From positions 1 to 59,387 of IMG/VR virus record IMGVR_UViG_3300027969_000005: a stretch of DNA of 59,387 nucleotides; one strand, given 5' to 3'. Positions within the stretch are counted from its first letter, which is position 1; each line of letters starts with the position of its first letter. This document shows, piece by piece, positions 13,101 through 41,118 of the stretch. A program made the position numbers and the translations under genes. The notes beneath the pieces were generated by a model. It was given only the letters and a program-made list of their open reading frames with translations. It had not been told where the DNA came from and made no database searches. Origin of the DNA: a virus.

Positions 13101-13290
13101 CTTCGTCGTTGGTGTCGATCTCGCCGCCCTCGGAATACCCACCATTGGCGTATCCCCCGCTAGCCCGCTCGACCGGCGCACCATGTCCAAAGGTCGGAAT
13201 GTCTACCGACGCAAAACCCGGATCGACTTTAGATGCGATCCGCTTTGCAAGCATGATGGCCTGAACGGCTGAACTGGGGGCAAGTTTCAT
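10111..13290 (-). CDS. Polyvalent-type protein with LPD-like domains, about 1059 aa
   Basis: Start ATG 13290 overlaps the TGA of the portal gene. Residues about 1-240 contain Gly-Gly motifs (ERASGGYANGGY, HRAAGGEV) and a short region containing HATAAEQIEAMRH. Residues about 340-630 match the large polyvalent-protein-associated domain: NYREVLMHLP, SSHWHEPNVVAHLRM, EELQSDWGQ, a GYDKFVWTPGKEQANRYDLS segment and YYDKLLPNRL. The last 350 residues hold a second such region (DLPGGHRSDIVKYMD, GFPSVGVTRAAI, WGDVPLVQRHYAMPD). Such proteins are thought to be carried in the virion and injected. Activity is unknown. Confidence 0.75.
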   Translation of the reverse strand: MKLAPSSAVQAIMLAKRIASKVDPGFASVDIPTFGHGAPVERASGGYANGGYSEGGEIDTNDEGKTLPESDKTLEHQRQLLLEGRRKAVMYPKGGNPAPEAPDGAGETITPDGTFHFNPALVTEEQIHEASRQHRLNEVLGLGPYSKQDIAKRIMQGEHPVAVVARDHEGHEVVSAAGTHATAAEQIEAMRHQVPEGGAIGIEHPEQVIRDRQAVHRAAGGEVDDGNDLNDAGLYSQAAKAADSLKQAKGRPQDMLRAISTSPGVKADEFKWSGANEAFANQPSVTKEDLVHHFHNRIPQLLEKTYHPHGKYKVASNPANQTGILDGPDWDLPEDFFTDDREELPSNSHGASMYHKYQMAGPRRNYREVLMHLPENDALGGNYQSSHWHEPNVVAHLRMSDRSTPEGQKVLHLEELQSDWGQDARKKGVAGIGPDAPYINKTENWTDLGLKRALIEAAKGGYDKFVWTPGKEQANRYDLSHHIDHIEYEPEEDGTHTVVAHDSNGEELSAHAGKTHSEISDIFGKEIADKIHAGHGDRVHGPYRDWKKLSNLDLKTGGEGMEGYYDKLLPNRLIKLAREHDPEAHLGYHEVGAESRADWVPASLNGSVPLPGLTITPRMRESILKRGFKAYAKGGEVGFSKGGSPDMDRVRAALARVSSPFSADPKSVNSALMIARSLKTPMGGETGTGSFYNVKQPMGVSDVSATVANIPGVTPKDIQHKSWEALHKEGGTLLNLGGDRSALGRLTHINGKELAWPVDLHAGTSYMREPNKGQVWANNPSHATALQKVIRAAAKTGPVFGAFGPMGPRAVDSSHNMFDALMAQIPTLDISKADAKAFDESIMRGEHIKGTDDKSVAKRASAIKYLETWPGIKNAKAASEFARDLPGGHRSDIVKYMDTALWAKKGFPSVGVTRAAISDPDVKGASGNMLGHRIVKFNPDATDTHPKSFEHSTYSTDTPGEYWGDVPLVQRHYAMPDVIDQMLSNPTKSGQIIHPYSPDSLGRSTARKLFEEQKQTQPINDRMLESIQQGLERQKDYGLNKGGTVNKAIGVAMRAQKRR

Positions 13291-15620
13291 CACTCAGATC
13301 CTTCAGTGCCCAGTTCGCGTTCAATCGGGCCAAGCTGGCTCTCGGCAGCAGCCGCGCCTTCTGGATGCAGCATAATATCCCGCGCCAATTGAAGCAATTG
13401 AATGCGCTCACGGCTGTGGCGGTCGAAGTCACGGTTCTTGTCCTCAGCATCGCGCTCAGCATGCTTGACGGTAAGCTCCTCGCGGCGCGTCTGGGCATCC
13501 ATCATCTTGGCCTCTACGGCCATCAGATCGGCCTGCGTGTCCTGCTGCTGCATGCCCCCGCCAGCCAGACCCTCTTGGCGAGGCGCGAACGCACCGCTTT
13601 GGATCTTGGCATCGACCTCTTTCATTTTGGCCTGTGCGCTCGTGGTCTGAGCGTCGGCGGCCTGCTTCTTGACCTGAATTTCGGCCATGACCTTTTGCAG
13701 TTCTGGCGGCGGTGCGGCTTGAGCCGTCTTGGGCGCAAGGAACTGCTGCGGGTTGTTCCAGCCGATAGCCTGCAGGGCCGCAGTGTCGATCGCCAGAGGA
13801 TCGTACATTGACGGATTGGCGGCCTGAAGCTGCTTCAGAGCCATGATCTTCATCACACGCTGGCCGTGCGAGGCAGTGTTAGGGTCTGCCTGCGGCACCA
13901 GTTCGCAATTGTTGATGGCCTGCAGGAACATCTGCTCGTCCCATTGCGTGGCGGACGCATTCTTGCGCTGCCAGAAGCTCTCAGGATGCTCCTTAAAGCA
14001 CTCGACGAGCAACTGAAACTCCGCCGCCTGCGAGGCGTGGATGCGCTTGTGGACGGCGTTCATGACCTTAGTGGCCTGCTCGATCATCGCCAGCGTCGTT
14101 CCGACAGGCGCTTCAGCCTTGCCCTCACCGACCTGTTGCTCAGATGTGCCGCCGATTCGCATGCCGGTGTTGGCCATGTCGCCAACAAGCTGCATCAGCG
14201 CCTGCGAAGGTGGCTGATAGGGCAAAGGCATGATGGCCTGACTGATGGGTAGACCACCAGTCTTGACGAGAGCACCACCGCCGGGCGGCACGCGGAAGAT
14301 ATTGGTGTTCTGCCGCGCCCCAGTGTCAGCCATGAGGAAGCCGGGGAAGTTCGAATACATTCCGGCGTCCAGAAGCTCGCGCCATGCGGCTGTGATGGCA
14401 TTGGTCGTGTTCCCAAGGATGTGAAGCAGGCCGATGTCATAGAAGCCCATGCCCGGCACAAAGGTGTACTTCACAAACGTCGTGCGGGCATCTGGAAGGT
14501 CTTGCGTTTCCTCGTCATAGTTCCGAACGATCGACAAAATCTCACGAGACGTCAGATCGATCGTCACCCGGTAGGGGATTTCAAGCCCGCTGATCTTGCC
14601 CTTGTGCTTGTGCTCAAAGCCCGCAATATCAAGCTCGCAATAGCACTCGTAGATTTCCCGATCACGGTCCTCAGGGCTTCCGGCGTTGGCATCTAGGCCC
14701 TGCTGGTTTTTTTCTTCGCGCTGCAGGCTGTCCAGCTTAGGCGCATTGGGCATGCCCAGATCAATATCGCGATAGACGCCCAAGATCTGCAGGCGCTTAA
14801 CCGTCGAGGGGCGCATATAGACGCGGTGCGTCACGCGCTTGGCGTTAGACAGGTCTGTGGCGCTGTTATTGACGATCAAATCGTCGGCATCGACTGATTC
14901 GCTGACCGGACGATTGCGAAGAGGGCAGAAATACACCTTTTTGAACGACGTGCCGCCAAACCCCAGCATCAAGAGCATGCGGTCGGTGTCTGGGTAATAT
15001 TCCTTGGCCGTTGCAGTCAGATAGTGGTTTAGGTCGCGCTCAAGGGCGTTGGCAAGCTGGTCTTCGCGCAGTTCGGCGTTGTTATCGTCGTTGCGGATCT
15101 TTACCGGACCATCTGTGGGCAGCATTTCAGACCGTGCATTGGCCTGAAAGCGCAAGACGGCCTCCAAAAGCAGCGGGTGGCGCACTTGGCTCATGCCCTC
15201 GACGGGCGCACCCTCTGCAGAACCGCCAGACTTGCCAATCTCGATCTTTAGGCCAAGAAGCTTTACGCCCTGACTGCGCTCTTGGATCCACTCCTCGCGG
15301 CTTTTTAGGTCAGACTCAATGCCGCGAAGCAGTTCTGACGAAATGCGGCCCAACTCACCGTCTTCGATGTCCTCAACAAGGTTATCGAACCACTCCAGCG
15401 GCCCACGGTTAGCCGCCTCCCCCAAAGGCGACCCGTCAAGCGACACAGTGACCGATCCGTCGCCATGTTCGATCTTGATGATATTGCCCTTTTGGTCAAC
15501 GTCCGGCACATCTTCGGCCTCGTCGCCCATTTCGATGACGACATGGTCCATATCGGGCTCAGCAGCGGCCCCAAGGCCACCAAGGCGGATGTTCGGCGTC
15601 AAACCGGGTGTCATGGCCAT
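13290..15620 (-). CDS. Portal protein
   Basis: 776 residues, downstream of the terminase. A central segment (MSQVRHPLLLEAVLRFQANA, GFGGTSFKKVYFCPLRNRP, VTHRVYMRPS) and a C-terminal Gln/Ala-rich helical barrel (about 640-760) match P22-size portal proteins of podovirus-like phages. The portal forms the dodecameric channel at one head vertex through which terminase packages DNA. It overlaps the 76-aa gene by 10 bases and the polyvalent gene at TGATG. The acidic N-terminus (about residues 20-50) is a local extension. Confidence 0.82.
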   Translation of the reverse strand: MAMTPGLTPNIRLGGLGAAAEPDMDHVVIEMGDEAEDVPDVDQKGNIIKIEHGDGSVTVSLDGSPLGEAANRGPLEWFDNLVEDIEDGELGRISSELLRGIESDLKSREEWIQERSQGVKLLGLKIEIGKSGGSAEGAPVEGMSQVRHPLLLEAVLRFQANARSEMLPTDGPVKIRNDDNNAELREDQLANALERDLNHYLTATAKEYYPDTDRMLLMLGFGGTSFKKVYFCPLRNRPVSESVDADDLIVNNSATDLSNAKRVTHRVYMRPSTVKRLQILGVYRDIDLGMPNAPKLDSLQREEKNQQGLDANAGSPEDRDREIYECYCELDIAGFEHKHKGKISGLEIPYRVTIDLTSREILSIVRNYDEETQDLPDARTTFVKYTFVPGMGFYDIGLLHILGNTTNAITAAWRELLDAGMYSNFPGFLMADTGARQNTNIFRVPPGGGALVKTGGLPISQAIMPLPYQPPSQALMQLVGDMANTGMRIGGTSEQQVGEGKAEAPVGTTLAMIEQATKVMNAVHKRIHASQAAEFQLLVECFKEHPESFWQRKNASATQWDEQMFLQAINNCELVPQADPNTASHGQRVMKIMALKQLQAANPSMYDPLAIDTAALQAIGWNNPQQFLAPKTAQAAPPPELQKVMAEIQVKKQAADAQTTSAQAKMKEVDAKIQSGAFAPRQEGLAGGGMQQQDTQADLMAVEAKMMDAQTRREELTVKHAERDAEDKNRDFDRHSRERIQLLQLARDIMLHPEGAAAAESQLGPIERELGTEGSE

Positions 15621-15852: not shown

Positions 15853-18489
15853 CTATGCGGGGTAAAGCGGCTGCAATTGGCCGCCGGGATAGGTCTTCAT
15901 GGACTCGATCTCTTCAATTCGCTCAGCGCCACGGGTCAAAAGCCCAATATCACGCATGTGGCGCAAGGCCTGAGACACCGTATCGACCATATCGTCGTGC
16001 TTTCCCTTAGGGAATTGTCCGACTTGGGTGATTAAGGCTTCTGCCCACGACCGATCTGGCGCATAGATCATGCCCTCGGCAAACAGATGCTGGATCGAAT
16101 AGAGGCGAGACAGCTTATCTTGGCTCTTTGGGTCGTGAAGCTGCACGCCAAACCGCTCGTGGTTATACAGACGCCGGATTTCCTGCGCCACAGAGTGTCC
16201 GGCGGCCTTGTTCTCGATTAAAAGCACGTCAACCTTGAGCGACCGGCATGTCTTGGCGACCTTTTCGACCAGTTCGTGGATCTCCAAACGTGCCTCCCAA
16301 GCATGCATCAGCATGACCTTGGGCGCGGCGTCCATATAGGACCGGTCGATATACATTGGCCGACCATCAGCATCCAAAATGCGCGAGGCCTGCGCCGTCG
16401 TTTCAGACGTGAAGACGCCCCAGATGCTCAGGGCGCTAGGGTCATTCATTGTCTTGGTCGTATAGGCGGTGTCCAAAGACGCCACGATGTAATCCATCGG
16501 CGGGAAGGACGCATCCTCCCACAATTGCCACCAGTCTCGCTTGATGACACCGCCCCCGGCGGGCTCAGGACGCTGCTGTAGCTGACCGGCGGCGGAGAAC
16601 GGACCCAAGGCACGCTCAAGGCGCGACACCTCTGCATCGCCAAACCGCTCGGGCCAGAGCAGTTCGCCCGGTTCGCTTCGTGGATCCTTCCAGCCGATAC
16701 CAGATACAAATGACCGCTCAGGTTCATAACGCATGGGAAGCATCAGGTGCGTCCAGTCATCGCGCTCCTTCTCAAGGATGTGGCCGGTCAGGTCGTCTTC
16801 GGCCAGACGCTGCTGGATGATCACGAACGCGCCCGTCTTGGGATCGTTGAGACGGGTGCTCATGGTGCCGTCCCACCACTCCTTGGTGGTCTCGATCGTG
16901 GCCTCAGAGAAGGCCTCAGACGCAGCGTTGGGGTCATCGACGATTATGCAATTGTGGACGAGAACTCCATCAGCAAAGAAGTTGCTAAATTCCTCAACTT
17001 GTATGTCATAGACCCACTCCTCTCTTGTGCCCAAAGATGCAACAGAGGAGACACCGTCAAAGTTCCAACGTGATGTTTGGCATGACAAGGCTGGCAAAGA
17101 GTAATCAGGTTTTCCGGCTCGTTGTTTTGAGGGTTGTGATCCACATGATGGACATGAAGAATTGATCTTGCATGAGATCCCCGTGGAAGCTTCATCTCCG
17201 CCTCCCCGCAAGCTGTGCATTCGTGATCGTCCCGCTCCAAAACAACCCGCCTCATTAATTTGTAAAGATTCGAGTATGGGGAATTGTTCTTGAAGTTTGA
17301 GTTCAATCTCCCCCGCATTCTGTCCGAATGATCCGCATCCGCACAAGCTGGAGAACAATATATTGTCCATATCTTGCCGCTCGGCATAAGTTTCATTCCG
17401 AAAATCGTTCCACAGCGGGGGCAAGATCGTTTCTTTTGATTTTTCCACCGCCATATTGCCTTGCAAGCATCCGAACAACATTTCGAGTGTCGGGTCTTTC
17501 TTGGCTTTTCGCAAACGACGCATTGAGCCGTATTTTTTGTCGCATGATGTGCTGAGCAACATATTTTCGAGCAATAGGCATCCCGACTGTTTTGCTTGAG
17601 CGCCTTCCTTGCTTCGTATAGTTGTTTTTCCGTCCGCTTCCCGCAATTGTCGCAAATCAAATGAAGAACTATTGTCCTTCCCGTTTTCGACAATAAGCCC
17701 GTCTCCTCTCCCCATTTCAGAAGCAAAGATATATCCCCACCCCGGTGAGAAGATTGGATGGTCTCCAGTACAGATAAATCGATTTCCCGAAAATGAATCC
17801 AATTGATAGAGGTCATTTGACTTCCTACGGTGTGTGGCTAAAATTTTAGAACTTACCACCTTACCCCGTGAATGATCAAACGCCAATATAATGTCACCGA
17901 TTTTTAGAGATTCGATTGGAACATGGCCCGCAGGCGTTGAAACCATCGTTCCCGCCACAAAACAGCTTCCGCCCTCACCGGTCACCGCCGCGCCAACGGA
18001 CGTGATCAGGCGCTCACCGCCCTTGTCGTTGGAGAAACGGCTTTTGGTGTTTTGGTCGCTGTTGAGCGTAAACCGATCACCCCACATGGACTGATACCAC
18101 GGGCTCTCGATCAGGCGTCGGCACTTGACACTGTCTCGCAAGGTCAACTGCTGGGCATAGGACGCATGCAGGAACTGCACGCCCGGCCCAGAAGTGGGGC
18201 CGCGATAGCTTTGCGCCCATGTCCATGCTGGAAAAGCCACCGAAGTAATCGATGACTTTCCAAAACGCGGAGGCACATTAATTATTAGACGTCTAATTTC
18301 CCCATCAACAACGGCTTGCAGATGTTCCGCAATTGCCTCGATGGGCCATCCGTCAGTCCATGGTGAGCTATCGATGTAGCGCCACGCATGGGTCAAAAAC
18401 AGATAGAGGCTGTCTTCGTATTCCGCCCGATCCAAGTCGAGCAATTGTCTTTTGGCATCGACCGTCAGACCACCAAGATCAACCTTCAT
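15853..18489 (-). CDS. terL: Terminase large subunit interrupted by an intein
   Basis: Start ATG 18489 is preceded by GAGG; more distal starts lack a site. In this 878-aa precursor the ATPase Walker A motif is PPRFGKSS (73-80). Walker B, IIVDDP, begins immediately after C514. Nuclease acids are D673 (VASLDTAY), E759 (LLIEN) and D832/D833 (HDDMVD). An intein of 338 residues occupies C176-N513, leaving an extein of 540 residues, a normal terminase size. The protein cuts concatemers and pumps DNA into the head through the portal. It can work only after splicing restores the chain at GEGGS/CIIVDDP. It overlaps terS by 11 bases. Confidence 0.9.
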   Translation of the reverse strand: MKVDLGGLTVDAKRQLLDLDRAEYEDSLYLFLTHAWRYIDSSPWTDGWPIEAIAEHLQAVVDGEIRRLIINVPPRFGKSSITSVAFPAWTWAQSYRGPTSGPGVQFLHASYAQQLTLRDSVKCRRLIESPWYQSMWGDRFTLNSDQNTKSRFSNDKGGERLITSVGAAVTGEGGSCFVAGTMVSTPAGHVPIESLKIGDIILAFDHSRGKVVSSKILATHRRKSNDLYQLDSFSGNRFICTGDHPIFSPGWGYIFASEMGRGDGLIVENGKDNSSSFDLRQLREADGKTTIRSKEGAQAKQSGCLLLENMLLSTSCDKKYGSMRRLRKAKKDPTLEMLFGCLQGNMAVEKSKETILPPLWNDFRNETYAERQDMDNILFSSLCGCGSFGQNAGEIELKLQEQFPILESLQINEAGCFGAGRSRMHSLRGGGDEASTGISCKINSSCPSCGSQPSKQRAGKPDYSLPALSCQTSRWNFDGVSSVASLGTREEWVYDIQVEEFSNFFADGVLVHNCIIVDDPNAASEAFSEATIETTKEWWDGTMSTRLNDPKTGAFVIIQQRLAEDDLTGHILEKERDDWTHLMLPMRYEPERSFVSGIGWKDPRSEPGELLWPERFGDAEVSRLERALGPFSAAGQLQQRPEPAGGGVIKRDWWQLWEDASFPPMDYIVASLDTAYTTKTMNDPSALSIWGVFTSETTAQASRILDADGRPMYIDRSYMDAAPKVMLMHAWEARLEIHELVEKVAKTCRSLKVDVLLIENKAAGHSVAQEIRRLYNHERFGVQLHDPKSQDKLSRLYSIQHLFAEGMIYAPDRSWAEALITQVGQFPKGKHDDMVDTVSQALRHMRDIGLLTRGAERIEEIESMKTYPGGQLQPLYPA
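16944..17816 (-). CDS. HNH homing endonuclease nested out of frame in the intein
   Basis: 290 residues on the same strand as terL but in a different frame, starting inside the intein and ending 7 bases beyond it. The ATG at 17816 has AGGAAG 4 bases upstream; a TTG at 17693 after GGAGAGGAG is an alternative start. Three zinc-ribbon-like repeats follow: C55-x2-C58/C82-x3-C86, C99-x2-C102/C114-x3-C118, C132-x2-C135/C154-x3-C158. Then comes the HNH domain: CTAC (200-203), HVHHVDHNPQNNEPENL (221-237) and LCQPCHAKHH (240-249). It would cut intein-less terL copies to spread the element. Motifs are clear; expression is inferred. Confidence 0.8.
   Translation of the reverse strand: MTSINWIHFREIDLSVLETIQSSHRGGDISLLLKWGEETGLLSKTGRTIVLHLICDNCGKRTEKQLYEARKALKQNSRDAYCSKICCSAHHATKNTAQCVVCEKPRKTRHSKCCSDACKAIWRWKNQKKRSCPRCGTIFGMKLMPSGKIWTIYCSPACADADHSDRMRGRLNSNFKNNSPYSNLYKLMRRVVLERDDHECTACGEAEMKLPRGSHARSILHVHHVDHNPQNNEPENLITLCQPCHAKHHVGTLTVSPLLHLWAQERSGSMTYKLRNLATSLLMEFSSTIA
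16951..17964 (-). mobile_element. Class 1 intein in the terminase ATPase domain
   Basis: Block A begins at C176 (CFVAGTMVSTPAGHVPIESL). Block B is FICTGDHPI with T241 and H244. Block F/G is VYDIQVEEFSNFFADGVLVHN, ending in H512-N513 followed by C514. All residues for protein splicing are present, so the intein is probably active. Between blocks B and F (about residues 274-490 of the precursor) there is no LAGLIDADG or HNH motif in the terminase frame. Instead that DNA encodes an HNH protein in another frame. Confidence 0.88.
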
Positions 18490-18970
18490 TTGCCTCAAAT
18501 TCCTCTTCATCGGAGGTGTCTTTGTCGTATTGACCCTGCTTGTCGATCGCCTTTTCAAGGATCTCACGCAGTGAATCGCGCTGATCTTGGGTCAAATCGC
18601 GGCTATCGACCGTCTGCGTGCTGGTCTCGCTTTGGATCGGATTGCCGTCTGGGCCGGTAAGCTCAGTGCGGTTTGTCTCACGCCAGCCAAGCTGCGTCTT
18701 TGCCCAGAACATGGCTGCAGGGGCGCAGCTTTTGTGGTTGATGTCCGTGGCAATCTGGAAAAGGGTCGAGACGACCTTAAAGTTCTTCTCGCCCTTCGCC
18801 TTCTTAAGCTCAGCGGGATAGTATTTGACCAGCGTATCGACATGCAAACCCATCATGTCGGCCACCTGAAGGTTGGTCATACCCATGCCAGCAGCCTCGG
18901 CCACTCGCTCGCGGCTTTCGTCTGTGGCAACATGGGCTGGTCGTCCGCGTCGGCGTGGTGCGTCGGTCAT
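18479..18970 (-). CDS. terS: Terminase small subunit
   Basis: 163 residues. Residues about 15-55 form a helix-turn-helix (AAGMGMTNLQVADMMGLHVD), followed by a helical oligomerisation region with APAAMFWAKTQLGWRE (84-99), a hallmark of this phage protein family. The tail is acidic and Glu-rich. It should recognise the packaging site and recruit TerL, whose gene overlaps its last 11 bases. An AGGA site precedes the start. Confidence 0.85.
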   Translation of the reverse strand: MTDAPRRRGRPAHVATDESRERVAEAAGMGMTNLQVADMMGLHVDTLVKYYPAELKKAKGEKNFKVVSTLFQIATDINHKSCAPAAMFWAKTQLGWRETNRTELTGPDGNPIQSETSTQTVDSRDLTQDQRDSLREILEKAIDKQGQYDKDTSDEEEFEANEG

Positions 18971-36672: not shown

Positions 36673-37776
36673 TTAGGATGCCTTTATGTAAGCGGTGGTG
36701 CCGGTGAAGGTTTGGACGACCGGGAGGGTGAAGGTGGTTTGGGCTACGGAGTAGGCTATGGTGGCGGAAGAGGCTGAACCATTGGCTACGGCAACAAAAT
36801 TCTGCACTCCTAGTAAACCGCCATAAGCAACAGAAGACCAACTTAAAGCCGCTGACATTGTTCTCGCAGTCCATGTTATCCCATCGGAAGATGAGGCTGC
36901 GGCAGTGCTTTGGGAGACTGCTACAAAAGCTCCGTTACCAAAAGTTACCGAACGCCAATTTCCTGATGAGGGTAAAGTTCGCTGGGTCCACGTGATCCCA
37001 TCTGTTGATGTGGCGGCGATGTTAGTCTCTGCTATTGCCGAAAAAACACCGTTTCCATAAGCCACGGCAAACCAATTCGCACTCGCAGGCAAAGTTCGCT
37101 GGGTCCACGTAATGCCATCGGGGGAAGTTGCAGCAATATTAGCGGGGCCTTGCGCTACCGCAACAAATGTTCCATTGCCATATGTAACGGAAGACCAATT
37201 TGCACTTGGCAAAGTTCGTTGGGTCCATCCCGCGCCGTTGGTTGATGATGCCGCGACGGTAGACGGACCCGTTGCTATCGCTACAAAAACGCCACTGCCA
37301 TATGCTGCGGATTGCCAAACGGGTGCCGTTGGCAAGGTATATTGGTACCAAGTAGCACCGTCATATGATATCGCAGCGACGTTGGTACCGCCAACCGCCA
37401 CAAACGTACCATTTCCAAAAGTTACGGCCCTCCAGTCCACGCTTGCTGGTAAGGTCCGCGCTGTCCACGTTATGCCGTCAGGAGAAGACGCGGCAATAGT
37501 AGAATTTGCAGCAACTGCTGCAAAAACACCGTTTCCATATGTTGCAGAACTCCACTGTGCAGACGCGGACATTGACCTAGCCGTCGCCGTAAACGCCGTC
37601 ACAGGCGTCGTCACCAGCGCAGCCAAAACGGGATACGAGGACGCCAAATATGAAGCAGTCGCGCTATTCAACGGCAAATACCCCGGAGCCGACAGCGCAT
37701 AGAGCGAGTAGGTGTAGTCCCCGACGTTCAGGCCGGTGGTGCCGAAGTTGACCGTGTTTGCGATGTTGCTAGCCAT
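36673..37776 (-). CDS. Seven-unit beta-propeller fibre protein 4, 367 aa
   Basis: Opens NTVNFGTTGLNVGDYTYSLY and GYLPLNSATASYLASSYPVL, shared with its three paralogues. Then come seven units of about 40-45 residues with the pattern ARTLPxSxxWxSVxFGNGxF followed by SxDGITWT (for example ARTLPASVDWRAVTFGNGTF, QRTLPASANWFAVAYGNGVF). Ends FTLPVVQTFTGTTAYIKAS. A seven-bladed propeller is expected. Likely a receptor-binding or sugar-binding fibre tip. Last of the four in transcription order; coupled by TAATG. Confidence 0.78.
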   Translation of the reverse strand: MASNIANTVNFGTTGLNVGDYTYSLYALSAPGYLPLNSATASYLASSYPVLAALVTTPVTAFTATARSMSASAQWSSATYGNGVFAAVAANSTIAASSPDGITWTARTLPASVDWRAVTFGNGTFVAVGGTNVAAISYDGATWYQYTLPTAPVWQSAAYGSGVFVAIATGPSTVAASSTNGAGWTQRTLPSANWSSVTYGNGTFVAVAQGPANIAATSPDGITWTQRTLPASANWFAVAYGNGVFSAIAETNIAATSTDGITWTQRTLPSSGNWRSVTFGNGAFVAVSQSTAAASSSDGITWTARTMSAALSWSSVAYGGLLGVQNFVAVANGSASSATIAYSVAQTTFTLPVVQTFTGTTAYIKAS

Positions 37777-38891
37777 TAGGTCGCCTTAACATATGCAGTG
37801 GTGCCAGCCTTGGGCGCTACTACGGGGAGGGTGAAGGACGTGGCGTTTACGGCGTAGTCTATTGTGGCTGCGGCAGAAGATGAGTTTGACACCGTTACAA
37901 ACTTGCCCGCACCAAAGGCTAGGCCGTACCATGTGGTGGAAGAGGGTAGGGTTTGAGATGCCCAAGTGATCCCATCGGGTGAAGTGGCGGCGGCAGTGGA
38001 CTGAGACACCATGACGAAAGTATTGTTGCCGTAGGCGCTTTTGGTCCACGTGGCCGAGGCTGGCAAGGTTCGGGCGGTCCAGTTAAACCCATCGGTAGAG
38101 GTTGCGGCGACCGTGCCGGTTCCACCTGAGTTGGCTAAAAAGATGCCGTTGCCGTAAGATAGGCCCGACCAGTTTTGTGCGGATGGCAATGTGCCCGCTA
38201 CCCATGTGATACCGTCAGCCGAAACGCTTGCGGCGGTTGACGCGCTTGAAGCTACCGCAACAAAAACGCCATTACCGTAAGCAACTCTAAACCAACTTGC
38301 CGAGGCCGATAGGGTTCGAGATGTCCAAGTGATCCCATCTGGGGAGGTGGCGGCAAGGGTAGACGAGGCGGCTACAGCGACAAACAGGCCATTGCCAAAT
38401 GTTACACTTGCCCAATTCCCAGACGGCATAGTGCGCTGCGTCCATGTAATCCCATCGGGAGACGTTGCCGCAACAGTGGATGGGCCGCTTGTTACCGCCA
38501 CAAAAATGCCATTTCCAAAAGTAACAGACCGCCAGTCTTGCGCGGATGGAAGGGTTCTCGCCGTCCATGTAATCCCGTCAGGCGAAGTGGCGGCTGCGGT
38601 GGACGTGGTAAATAGCCCGCCCGTCGTCACAAAGACACCGTTGCCAAAGGCCACATCGCCCCAAGACGCGCTGGAAGGCAAAGTCCTAGCCGTCGCCGTA
38701 TAGCTCACAGGCGTAATCACAGGCACGATCAGCGCCCCAAGCGCAGGGTAAGACGACACGAGGTAGGACGCCGTGTAGCTATTCAGAGGCAAGTACCCCG
38801 GCGAGGGCATGGCATACTGAGAGTACATCCAGTCGCCCACGGACTGTGTGGTGGCCCCGAAGTTGACAAGCGATGATGCGTTAGTGGGCAT
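37776..38891 (-). CDS. Seven-unit beta-propeller fibre protein 3, 371 aa
   Basis: Same plan: NFGATTQSVGDWMYSQYAMP, then PGYLPLNSYTASYLVSSYPA, seven propeller units (for example ARTLPSAQDWRSVTFGNGIF, QRTMPSGNWASVTFGNGLF, SRTLSASASWFRVAYGNGVF), and C-terminal FTLPVVAPKAGTTAYVKAT. Unit surfaces differ between paralogues while the W/FGNG core is fixed, as expected for binding proteins under diversification. Start overlaps the upstream stop region. Confidence 0.78.
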   Translation of the reverse strand: MPTNASSLVNFGATTQSVGDWMYSQYAMPSPGYLPLNSYTASYLVSSYPALGALIVPVITPVSYTATARTLPSSASWGDVAFGNGVFVTTGGLFTTSTAAATSPDGITWTARTLPSAQDWRSVTFGNGIFVAVTSGPSTVAATSPDGITWTQRTMPSGNWASVTFGNGLFVAVAASSTLAATSPDGITWTSRTLSASASWFRVAYGNGVFVAVASSASTAASVSADGITWVAGTLPSAQNWSGLSYGNGIFLANSGGTGTVAATSTDGFNWTARTLPASATWTKSAYGNNTFVMVSQSTAAATSPDGITWASQTLPSSTTWYGLAFGAGKFVTVSNSSSAAATIDYAVNATSFTLPVVAPKAGTTAYVKAT

Positions 38892-38893
38892 GT

Positions 38894-40006
38894 CTAGGTC
38901 GCCTTAACGTATGCGGTGGTGCCGGTGATGGGGGAGATTACGGGGAGGGTGAAGGTGGTTTGGGTGACAGAGTAGGCTATGGATGCTGCGGCTGTTGTTG
39001 GGCCTTGAGCCACAATAACAAAGTTTTGCGTTCCGGGTACGCCTCCGTAGCACCCCCCAACGTAATCTGCTGCAGGCAAGGTTTGGGCCGTCCAAGTTGT
39101 GCCATTGGTAGATGTGGACGCAACAGCCGTAGTTCCGGAAATTGCAACAAAGCTGCCATTTCCAAACATAACTTTTCGCCAAGTAGCAGAAGCAGAAAGC
39201 GTCCTTGATGTCCAAGTAATGCCATCGGATGACGTTACCGCAGCATTTGATCCGTAGGCCACCGCGACAAACGTACCATTCCCAAAAGCCACACTAGCCC
39301 AGTTTGCCGCCGATGAAAGCGTTCTGGCGGTCCATGTAAAGCCATCGGGAGATGTGGCTGCGGTGGTTGATAGCGATCCGCCCATAACGGCAACAAAGGT
39401 ATTATTTCCGAAAGCAACGCCAATCCAACTTCCTGAAGATGGAAGAGTTCTGGATGTCCAAGTGATACCATCTGGGGATGTTGCCCCCAAGGCAGACCCT
39501 TGCATTACGCCAACAAATATACCGCCTCCAAAACCAACATAGTATAAAGAAACGGGTGATGTTCTAGATGTCCAATTAATACCATCGGGTGATGTTATTA
39601 CACTTGTGCCGCCACTTAAAGCAACAAATATGCCATTACCAAAAACAACATCTGTCCATCCCGTTCCGACAAATGCGCTGGTTACCCAGTTTATTCCATC
39701 TGAACTAGTTGCTATGCGGCCATTACTAGCGCCACCCGTGCTAACAGCAACAAATTTTCCGTTTCCGTAGGCTACTGCGTTCCAGTCGGCTGATCCGGGC
39801 AAAGTCCTAGCCGTAGCCGTAAACGCCGTCACAGGCGTAGTCATCAAGGCGAACAGCGCAGGGTAAGACGAAGCCAGATACGAAGTCGCCGCATTATCCG
39901 CAGGCAAAAAGCTAGGAGCCGACCGGGGTCCAATCGCGTAGATGAACTCCCCCACGGCTGGGCCTGTGGTGCCGAAGTTGACGAGGCTTGCTGCTGAGAC
40001 TGCCAT
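38894..40006 (-). CDS. Seven-unit beta-propeller fibre protein 2, 370 aa
   Basis: The most divergent copy: NFGTTGPAVGEFIYAIGPRS, APSFLPADNAATSYLASSYP, then seven units including two degenerate ones (TSAFVGTGWTDVVFGNGIF, SRTSPVSLYYVGFGGGIF). Ends FTLPVISPITGTTAYVKAT. The middle of the gene is A/T-richer in synonymous positions than the N-terminal end, suggesting different histories for the blades. Confidence 0.76.
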   Translation of the reverse strand: MAVSAASLVNFGTTGPAVGEFIYAIGPRSAPSFLPADNAATSYLASSYPALFALMTTPVTAFTATARTLPGSADWNAVAYGNGKFVAVSTGGASNGRIATSSDGINWVTSAFVGTGWTDVVFGNGIFVALSGGTSVITSPDGINWTSRTSPVSLYYVGFGGGIFVGVMQGSALGATSPDGITWTSRTLPSSGSWIGVAFGNNTFVAVMGGSLSTTAATSPDGFTWTARTLSSAANWASVAFGNGTFVAVAYGSNAAVTSSDGITWTSRTLSASATWRKVMFGNGSFVAISGTTAVASTSTNGTTWTAQTLPAADYVGGCYGGVPGTQNFVIVAQGPTTAAASIAYSVTQTTFTLPVISPITGTTAYVKAT

Positions 40007-40008
40007 GA

Positions 40009-41118
40009 TCAGGTCGCCTTAACGTAGGCCGTGGTGCCGAAGCGAGCAGGCACGACGGGGAGCACGAAGGTGGTGGCGGTTACGGCGTAGTCAATAGTGG
40101 CCGCTATGGTGCCGGTGGTAATGGATGTAGCCACAAATTTACCCGCCCCAAAAGCCAAACCAATCCAATTAGATGAGGATGGCAATGTTCGTGCAGTCCA
40201 TGTGACGCCATCGGAAGAGGTCGCAGACGCAGAAGAGCCGTAAGCAATAGCTACAAAACTATTGTTTCCGTATCGTACTTGTCTCCACGTTGCGGTGCTT
40301 GGAAGGGTTCTTGACGTCCAATCTAACCCATTTGTAGACGTGGCGGATATTGTTCCAGAGGTAAATGAAAGAGCTGAAAACACACCATTTCCAAAAGCGA
40401 TGGTCGCCCACGAGGACGAAACCGGCATAGTTCCTAAAACCCAATTTACGCCATCAGAAGAAACAGCCGTGTTTGTTGCCGGGGAGGCAACCGCTACAAA
40501 AACGCCGTTGCCATAAGTTATGTCAGCCCAATTTAAAGAGGAAGGTAGCGTTCGCGCAGTCCACGTAACTCCATCAGTAGACGTAGCAGCGGCGTTGGTC
40601 GCGGTTCCCCCTATGGTTACAAAAATACCATTCCCGAAGGTTACTGCGGTCCAAGTTGATGAAGAAGGAAGCGTTCTAGCGGTCCAAGTTACACCATCGG
40701 GAGAAGTTGCTGCTGAAGTTGATCCGTTAGCGACAGCTACAAAAACACCATTTCCAAAAGTCACAGAATACCAAGATGCGGCGGATGGAAGCGTTCGTGC
40801 CGTCCAAGTGATGCCATCTGGAGACGTGGCGGCAGAAGTGGTGTTTGCCCCCAAAGTTACAAAAACGCCATTTCCATATGCAATAGCTTGCCACTGGGCA
40901 GTGGCTGGCAATGTCCTAGCCGTAGCCGAATAAGCCACAGGCGCAATCACCGGACTAACAATCGCAGCCAAGGCCGGATAGGACGACACAAGATAGGACG
41001 TGGTGTAGCTGTCCAGAGGCAGATAGCCCGGTGCCGTCCGCGCATAGGCGGAGTACAGCCAGTCCCCAACCGCTAGGCCCGTGGTGCCGAAATTGAGAAG
41101 CGTCGAGGCGTCAACCAA
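40009..41118 (-). CDS. Seven-unit beta-propeller fibre protein 1, 369 aa
   Basis: First of the four copies. NFGTTGLAVGDWLYSAYART, then PGYLPLDSYTTSYLVSSYPA, then seven regular units (ARTLPATAQWQAIAYGNGVF, ARTLPSAASWYSVTFGNGVF and others) and FVLPVVPARFGTTAYVKAT. The N-terminal part probably docks to the tail and the propeller binds the host surface. Overlaps the preceding fibre gene by a few bases. Confidence 0.78.
   Translation of the reverse strand: MVDASTLLNFGTTGLAVGDWLYSAYARTAPGYLPLDSYTTSYLVSSYPALAAIVSPVIAPVAYSATARTLPATAQWQAIAYGNGVFVTLGANTTSAATSPDGITWTARTLPSAASWYSVTFGNGVFVAVANGSTSAATSPDGVTWTARTLPSSSTWTAVTFGNGIFVTIGGTATNAAATSTDGVTWTARTLPSSLNWADITYGNGVFVAVASPATNTAVSSDGVNWVLGTMPVSSSWATIAFGNGVFSALSFTSGTISATSTNGLDWTSRTLPSTATWRQVRYGNNSFVAIAYGSSASATSSDGVTWTARTLPSSSNWIGLAFGAGKFVATSITTGTIAATIDYAVTATTFVLPVVPARFGTTAYVKAT

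What the first reader, a model, noticed from the sequence alone, without database searches (positions are those of the whole stretch)
16944..17964. HNH homing endonuclease hidden out of frame inside a terminase intein
The terL frame carries complete splicing blocks (C176, T241-x2-H244, H512-N513, +1 Cys) but no in-frame endonuclease. The same strand, in another frame, encodes a 290-residue protein with three zinc-ribbon repeats and a full HNH domain, ending 7 bases past the intein. Inteins normally fuse their endonuclease in frame between the splicing blocks. Here one DNA stretch must encode both an intein linker and a separate enzyme, so the unit is a dual-coded homing element with its own start sites (AGGAAG before ATG 17816; GGAGAGGAG before TTG 17693).
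Basis: partly seen in the sequence, partly recalled or inferred. Interest (0 to 1): 0.92.

Follow-up and report, generated by a model that had tools for sequence, protein, structure and literature searches.

The report
Intein with hidden out-of-frame DNA-cutting enzyme
Inside a phage's DNA-packaging gene sits a self-removing protein insert whose DNA also encodes, in a second reading frame, a separate DNA-cutting enzyme that probably copies the insert into other phages; I found the same double-coded arrangement in dozens of other phages, and it had been mentioned once before for phages of Brucella.

Summary
The window (an IMG/VR virus record) carries terL with a 338-aa intein (17964-16951) placed just before the Walker B strand, and a 290-codon HNH gene (17816-16944) in the +1 frame inside it. 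Among relatives this is no accident: 33 TerL precursors (<80% identical) share the insertion site, splicing residues and +1-frame HNH. The intein frame has no stop in any of the 33 (3-21 expected per gene if the HNH's synonymous codons are permuted). The fastest-evolving codon position switches from intein to HNH frame at the HNH's ATG and switches back at the C-terminal splicing block. AlphaFold gives a confident HNH (pLDDT 90.5) and a confident Hint fold joined by a disordered linker. Best reading: a dual-coded mobile intein. Splicing removes the insert from TerL; a separately translated HNH nuclease drives homing (inferred). Allele states found: intact, decayed HNH, HNH deleted, empty site. 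I also found the same trick in the -1 frame (TerL nuclease-site inteins), with a Vsr-like nuclease in helicase inteins, two dual-coded inteins in one terL, and split derivatives. Not without precedent: brucellaphages (2015) and the ShiLan insertion (2025). Hence a new member of a known, barely studied kind.

The parts
17965..18489 (-). TerL N-extein (ATG 18489 to residue 175)
   Evidence: phrog_38, phrog_4758 terminase large subunit
15853..16950 (-). TerL C-extein; first codon 16950-16948 is the +1 Cys, followed by Walker B IIVDDP
   Evidence: intein-free relatives carry Ile/Val at +1
16951..17964 (-). Intein, 338 aa, C1 to N338; 46% GC against 58% in the C-terminal TerL coding part
   Evidence: PF14890 Intein_splicing E 1e-11 and TIGR01443 E 2e-7; solved inteins by fold, E to 1e-7
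17686..17964 (-). Hint N-terminal splicing part, intein residues 1-93 (block A Cys1; block B T66-G-D-H69 at 17769-17758)
   Evidence: C1, T66, H69 invariant in the aligned inteins; pLDDT ~96
16951..17070 (-). Hint C-terminal splicing part, residues 299-338, ending VHN
   Evidence: N338 invariant, H337 nearly invariant; pLDDT 91-96
17137..17673 (-). Intein-frame linker, residues 98-276: predicted disordered, kept open but not conserved as protein
   Evidence: pLDDT mostly <50; divergence pattern
16944..17816 (-). HNH endonuclease gene, +1 frame relative to terL/intein, 290 aa, ATG start
   Evidence: phrog_1271 HNH E 8.5e-24; mean pLDDT 90.5
17667..17816 (-). HNH N-terminal domain (residues 1-50) overlapping intein block B: stretch under constraint in both frames
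   Evidence: pLDDT 88-96; ATG kept in 6 of 6 closest relatives
17343..17654 (-). Three zinc-ribbon-like CxxC...CxxxC modules of the HNH protein (residues 55-158)
   Evidence: C55, C58, C132, C135, C154, C158 invariant in 35 homologues
17067..17234 (-). HNH catalytic domain (residues 195-250; VHH 17153-17145, N236 17111-17109, H245 17084-17082)
   Evidence: H223, H224, N236, H245 invariant in 35 homologues; PF01844
17821..17826 (-). Possible ribosome-binding site AGGAAG upstream of ATG 17816 (weak; not conserved)
18479..18970 (-). Terminase small subunit gene directly upstream of terL (context)
   Evidence: phrog_309 E 4e-14

Best explanation
This is a mobile TerL intein that is dual-coded. Read in the terL frame, the DNA gives a complete Hint splicing domain in two pieces (residues 1-93 and about 299-338) joined by a disordered linker of about 200 aa; after translation the intein excises itself and leaves working TerL. 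Read one base further on, from an internal ATG just upstream of block B, the same mRNA gives a separate 290-aa HNH nuclease with an N-terminal domain and three zinc ribbons. That nuclease most likely cuts the intein-free terL site, and repair from the intein-bearing copy spreads the element together with its +1 Cys codon (homing). Selection keeps the HNH as a protein and keeps the intein frame merely free of stops across the linker. Shown here: both open frames, family-wide conservation, the switch of the selected frame at the HNH ATG and at the C-block, conserved catalytic residues in both products, and intact, decayed, deleted and empty alleles. Inferred: protein splicing, separate initiation at ATG 17816, cleavage of the empty site, and homing.
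For: 33 TerL precursors (<80% identical to each other), all with insertion before Walker B; C1, TxxH and Asn invariant, HN and +1 Cys nearly so. Pfam Intein_splicing in 31 of 33. HNH in the +1 frame in all, with H223/H224/N236/H245 and zinc Cys invariant. Zero intein-frame stops in 33/33 against 3-21 expected each, third frame 6-27. Codon-position rates: window vs L093 extein 0.25/0.19/0.56, overlap 0.53/0.31/0.32; the switch lies at intein residue ~46-50 and ~316. ATG kept in 6/6 closest relatives across three intein dipeptides (ND, NG, DE), each with an HNH-frame stop shortly upstream. Confident models for both products and intein fold matches. Closest relatives at 78% TerL identity have an empty site with Ile/Val at +1. 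Decayed HNH in L040 and L053, remnant in L179, mini-intein in L166, intein frame intact in all four. No Rfam intron.
Against: No direct evidence of splicing, HNH translation or cleavage. Shine-Dalgarno motifs before the conserved ATG are weak in relatives, and the upstream promoter-like match is at chance level. Recent transfer is not clear from synonymous rates: of eight pairs compared only L050-L057 (p=0.0003) and marginally L054-L050 (p=0.049) have an intein less diverged than its extein; window-L093 does not. On the extein tree the six intein carriers need only three changes and are clustered, so patchiness is modest. The stop-count test treats related loci as independent, and loci were required to have an open host frame, although every homologue with E<1e-30 met that.
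Confidence: 0.82

Rival explanations
1. The overlapping HNH is a working part of the DNA-packaging machine, like the HNH proteins encoded next to terminase genes in many phages, and sits inside the TerL intein to be co-expressed with TerL; homing is secondary or absent.
For: terS-terL neighbourhood. Acinetobacter phage BP10 has a homologue of the class-2 HNH free-standing just upstream of terS. The brucellaphage paper proposed a functional association with terminase, citing Kala et al. 2014 (PMC4422536).
Against: Close relatives lack intein and HNH altogether. HNH is decayed or deleted in L040, L053, L179 and L166 with terL and intein intact. Comparable out-of-frame nucleases sit in helicase inteins unrelated to packaging. 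Several zinc ribbons suit site-specific DNA recognition.
Confidence: 0.08
2. The HNH is not started independently but made by a +1 ribosomal frameshift out of the intein frame, giving a Hint-N/HNH fusion with its own role.
For: All class-1 HNH ORFs are in the same +1 frame. Ribosome-binding motifs are weak, and in several distant relatives no single start codon stands out.
Against: In the window clade, HNH-frame selection begins at a conserved ATG just downstream of HNH-frame stops. The class-2 HNHs use the other frame, so no one shift type is favoured. I did not search systematically for slippery sites.
Confidence: 0.1
3. The HNH ORF is a chance overlap or a dead remnant without function.
For: Long overlapping ORFs do arise in some contexts; ET08's portal gene shows several ORFs of 119-220 aa in other frames without recognisable content.
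Against: A complete catalytic HNH with invariant residues in 35 homologues, purifying selection in the HNH frame and a confident fold.
Confidence: 0.01

Closest known systems
Brucellaphage TerL intein with out-of-frame HNH (Virol J 2015;12:66, PMC4422536)
   Same: [quoted passage not shown] an HNH R63L change is silent in TerL.
   Different: One phage group, no analysis of splicing blocks, frame or selection in the text read. Its sequence was not in the collections I could open, so homology to this family was not tested. No brucellaphage appeared among the listed hits of the class-1 or class-2 HNH.
[quoted passage not shown]
   Same: HNH with flanking zinc fingers in an alternate frame of an insertion that keeps the host gene open; patchy distribution read as homing.
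   Different: The paper finds no splicing domain, and the HNH is in the third frame. My search also drew in six C5-methylase genes with an overlapping HNH and no Hint match, in the +1 frame. The window element has a full Hint domain.
Canonical mycobacteriophage TerL inteins (mBio 2016;7:e01537-16, PMC5050341)
   Same: Inteins in the TerL ATPase domain near Walker motifs; splicing and cleavage of inteinless terL shown experimentally for some.
   Different: That paper does not describe an overlapping endonuclease frame in the passages read; here the nuclease is a separate protein in another frame.
Fractured genes: split inteins flanking a free-standing nuclease (Dassa et al. 2009, own knowledge; cited in PMC10448857)
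   Same: Nuclease made as its own protein beside a Hint domain.
   Different: There the intein halves are separate genes. Vibrio phage 1.238.A TerL and Proteus phage PM2 helicase show that state, one stop away from the window's arrangement.
In-frame HNH_3 intein of cyanophage CL131 dCTP deaminase (PMC6293099)
   Same: Phage intein with an HNH nuclease; excision shown in E. coli.
   Different: HNH fused in frame.

Membership tests
Intein (Hint protein-splicing element) | Nucleophile at position 1 (Cys/Ser) and Cys/Ser/Thr at +1 | tested here: met
   Cys1 invariant in 33; Cys+1 in 32 of 33 (Ser in L028)
Intein (Hint protein-splicing element) | Block B TxxH and C-terminal HN | tested here: met
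   T66, H69, N338 invariant; H337 nearly invariant
Intein (Hint protein-splicing element) | Hint fold | tested here: met
   Confident model of residues 1-93 and 299-338; Foldseek to solved inteins E 1e-7 to 1e-3; PF14890 above cut-off
Intein (Hint protein-splicing element) | Self-excision with ligation of exteins | not testable with these tools
   Needs expression; inferred from conserved residues and intact exteins
Intein with in-frame endonuclease domain | Nuclease motifs in the intein frame between the splicing blocks | tested here: not met
   No nuclease family in the host frame; linker disordered; C-block not significantly found in the frame of any of 98 HNH ORFs
HNH endonuclease | H-N-H catalytic residues with zinc-binding Cys | tested here: met
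   PF01844 just above cut-off; invariant H223/H224, N236, H245 in 35 homologues
Homing endonuclease element | Occupied and empty alleles at one site, patchy among relatives | tested here: met
   Empty-site TerL at up to 78% identity, but only three changes on the tree
Homing endonuclease element | Cleavage of the empty allele and gene conversion | not testable with these tools
   Needs cleavage assay and co-infection
Group I/II intron with internal endonuclease ORF | Ribozyme structure | tested here: not met
   No Rfam match in the window; host frame open throughout
ShiLan-type insertion | Out-of-frame HNH in an insertion without splicing domain | tested here: not met
   The window element has a complete Hint domain

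The most novel reading that the evidence does not exclude
Out-of-frame encoding is the common way in which non-LAGLIDADG nucleases live in phage inteins. HNH nucleases (both alternative frames) and Vsr-like DUF559 nucleases entered Hint inteins in terL and helicase genes several times independently as free-standing genes, keep the intein frame open, and give rise to split inteins when one stop codon closes that frame.
Probability: 0.5. Interest if true: 0.8.

Novelty: new member of a known kind. Interest (0 to 1): 0.64.

Why it matters
Inteins are taught as one reading frame holding splicing blocks with a fused nuclease. Here two unrelated proteins share up to about 290 codons of the same DNA, and the arrangement recurs in phages of actinobacterial and cyanobacterial hosts and in many environmental contigs. 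That gives a large natural set for studying overlapping genes, helps explain why such genes are annotated only as one long terminase with the nuclease missed, and offers a testable path from whole inteins to split inteins: a separately translated nuclease makes the intein frame dispensable as a continuous chain. It also shows that gene callers miss a class of homing enzymes hidden inside essential phage genes.

Tried and rejected
Chance overlap: rejected. Intron: no Rfam match. In-frame nuclease in the linker: none. Alternative start TTG 17693: HNH-frame selection already starts at ATG 17816 and residues 1-50 fold confidently, so TTG is at best secondary. Clear recent transfer from synonymous rates: inconclusive. 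Own promoter upstream of the HNH: chance level. PDB fold of the whole HNH protein: no significant match; only the HNH module resembles McrA, Cap5 and IscB. Caspase-2 hits in the sequence search of solved structures are cysteine-spacing noise at E>0.05. Brucellaphage records could not be opened, nor the preprint on actinobacteriophage inteins or Gorbalenya 1998; the ShiLan paper cites these two where it says overlapping frames are frequent in actinobacteriophages, so earlier descriptions of out-of-frame intein nucleases may exist there.

Full report
WHAT IS THERE. The window is a 59,387-bp IMG/VR virus record. terL runs on the minus strand from ATG 18489 to 15853, behind terS (18479-18970, phrog_309) and ahead of a portal gene (13290-15620, phrog_1216). 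Residues 176-513 form an intein (17964-16951; 338 aa; 46% GC against 58% in the C-terminal coding part) inserted directly before the Walker B strand...GEGGS|C...HN|CIIVDDP. Pfam Intein_splicing (E 1e-11) and NCBI intein_Cterm (E 2e-7) match. In the +1 frame of the same strand, ATG 17816 to stop 16944 encodes 290 aa with three CxxC...CxxxC modules and an HNH core; PHROG 1271 HNH matches at E 8.5e-24.

NOT CHANCE, FAMILY-WIDE. tblastn against phages found the HNH under 'terminase' annotations in Gordonia phage Clown and Synechococcus phage S-EIVl; in both it is in the +1 frame of an intein-bearing terL. Scans of viral contigs brought in about 60 loci where a homologous HNH lies wholly inside a long open host frame, and all 39 non-redundant cases (<80% identical hosts) are +1. 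Thirty-three are TerL precursors with the intein at the same Walker B site; C1, T66, H69 and N338 are invariant, and H337 and Cys+1 nearly so. Thirty-one of 33 match Pfam Intein_splicing. The other six hosts are C5 DNA methylases with no Hint match, i.e. ShiLan-like. A search seeded with the intein C-block instead of the HNH gave 31 non-redundant Walker-B inteins: 30 carry an HNH-profile match in the +1 frame (L179's being only a remnant) and L166 has none.

BOTH FRAMES ARE KEPT. If the HNH's synonymous codons are permuted (protein and codon usage unchanged), the intein frame should hold 3-21 stops per locus; it holds none in 33/33, while the unused third frame holds 6-27. The loci are related and were required to have an open host frame, so the product of probabilities should not be read literally; but every homologue with E<1e-30 had the open frame. 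Divergence by codon position gives the selected frame directly. In exteins and the intein N-block, host position 3 is fastest; in the overlap, host position 1 (= HNH position 3) is fastest (window vs L093: extein 0.25/0.19/0.56, overlap 0.53/0.31/0.32). Along the intein of the six closest relatives the switch occurs at residues ~46-50, at the HNH ATG, and back at ~316, the start of the C-block. In residues ~50-95, around block B, all three positions are slow: this short stretch is doubly constrained. In the linker (~96-315) HNH position 3 is near the extein's third-position level, so the intein frame there is kept open but not conserved as protein.

PRODUCTS. AlphaFold with 33 sequences gives the HNH protein a mean pLDDT of 90.5, including residues 1-50, which supports ATG 17816 as the start. 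The intein model is confident at residues 1-93 and 299-338 and mostly below 50 in between; it matches solved inteins. H223, H224, N236, H245 and most zinc cysteines are invariant in 35 HNH homologues. The ATG is kept in six of six close relatives although the intein residues there differ (ND, NG, DE), and each has an HNH-frame stop shortly upstream. Shine-Dalgarno signals are weak; a promoter-like match is at chance level.

MOBILITY. TerL relatives up to 78% identical have no insert at this site and carry Ile or Val where intein-bearing alleles have the +1 Cys, as expected if the element brings its Cys. On the extein tree presence/absence needs three changes. Synonymous divergence of intein against extein is significantly lower clearly in one pair and marginally in another of eight, so recent transfer is only hinted at. 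The homing cycle's states are visible: intact; decayed HNH with intact intein (L040, L053); HNH remnant (L179); mini-intein (L166); empty (L094 and others).

WIDER PATTERN (beyond the finding). TerL nuclease-site inteins carry a different HNH (PF13392 type) in the -1 frame: L192, L194, L200, L204, L208, L213, L222, Acinetobacter phage Highwayman, Tetrasphaera phage TJE1. There host position 2, normally the slowest, becomes the fastest (L194 vs L208 overlap 0.14/0.41/0.20, outside 0.11/0.07/0.49). The stop-count test is weak for some of these (TJE1 P=0.23). L167 carries both kinds in one terL. Helicase inteins of Pseudomonas phage MR14 and Corynebacterium phage phi673 carry a DUF559/MTES_1575 (Vsr-like) nuclease in the +1 frame; Vibrio phage 1.088.O has a similar +1 ORF by eye. 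Vibrio phage 1.238.A TerL and Proteus phage PM2 helicase are split with a nuclease or nuclease-like gene between the halves. LAGLIDADG-type inteins seen here (PS1 TdS, ET08 portal, Walker-A terL inteins L099, L100, L104) appear in-frame, judged by eye. CL131's HNH_3 intein is an in-frame exception.

KNOWN OR NEW. The arrangement was noted in brucellaphages in 2015 (PMC4422536), and ShiLan is an out-of-frame HNH without splicing domain (PMC11855218). The preprint and the 1998 paper most likely to bear on it could not be read. I therefore file the window as a new member of a known but barely studied kind. What is added is evidence for dual coding as a selected, family-wide state and for its recurrence with other nucleases, frames and host genes. 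Splicing, separate translation and homing remain to be shown at the bench.

Noticed in passing
L167:1495-5088: One terL gene with two dual-coded inteins: Walker-B intein with HNH in the +1 frame and nuclease-site intein with another HNH in the -1 frame.
   Followed up: partly
L225:2158-2895, L230:2748-3392, L231: Helicase inteins (Pseudomonas phage MR14, Corynebacterium phage phi673; Vibrio phage 1.088.O by eye) with a DUF559/MTES_1575 Vsr-like nuclease encoded in the +1 frame.
   Followed up: partly
L229:2387-3118, L235:2779-3660: Fractured genes: TerL (Vibrio phage 1.238.A) and UvsW-like helicase (Proteus phage PM2) split within the intein, with a nuclease or nuclease-like ORF overlapping both halves.
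   Followed up: partly
L077:584-2308 and L081:945-2672: ShiLan-like out-of-frame HNH in C5 methylases: the HNH stretch differs at 4 sites in 124 codons while the rest of the gene differs at 332 sites in 433 codons, a strong sign of recent transfer.
   Followed up: no
L224:2495-3136 versus L223:2459-3133: Homologous HNH is free-standing upstream of terS in Acinetobacter phage BP10 but hidden in a TerL intein in phage Highwayman: a possible donor state.
   Followed up: no
36673-41118: Four consecutive ORFs of about 370 aa with similar N-termini (VNFGTTG...GYLPLNS...YLxSSYPxLxAL), probably tandem paralogues next to tail genes; one tested gave no PHROG match.
   Followed up: no
L166:1048-3720: A terL gene that appears to carry two small inteins without nuclease, at Walker A and at Walker B.
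   Followed up: no
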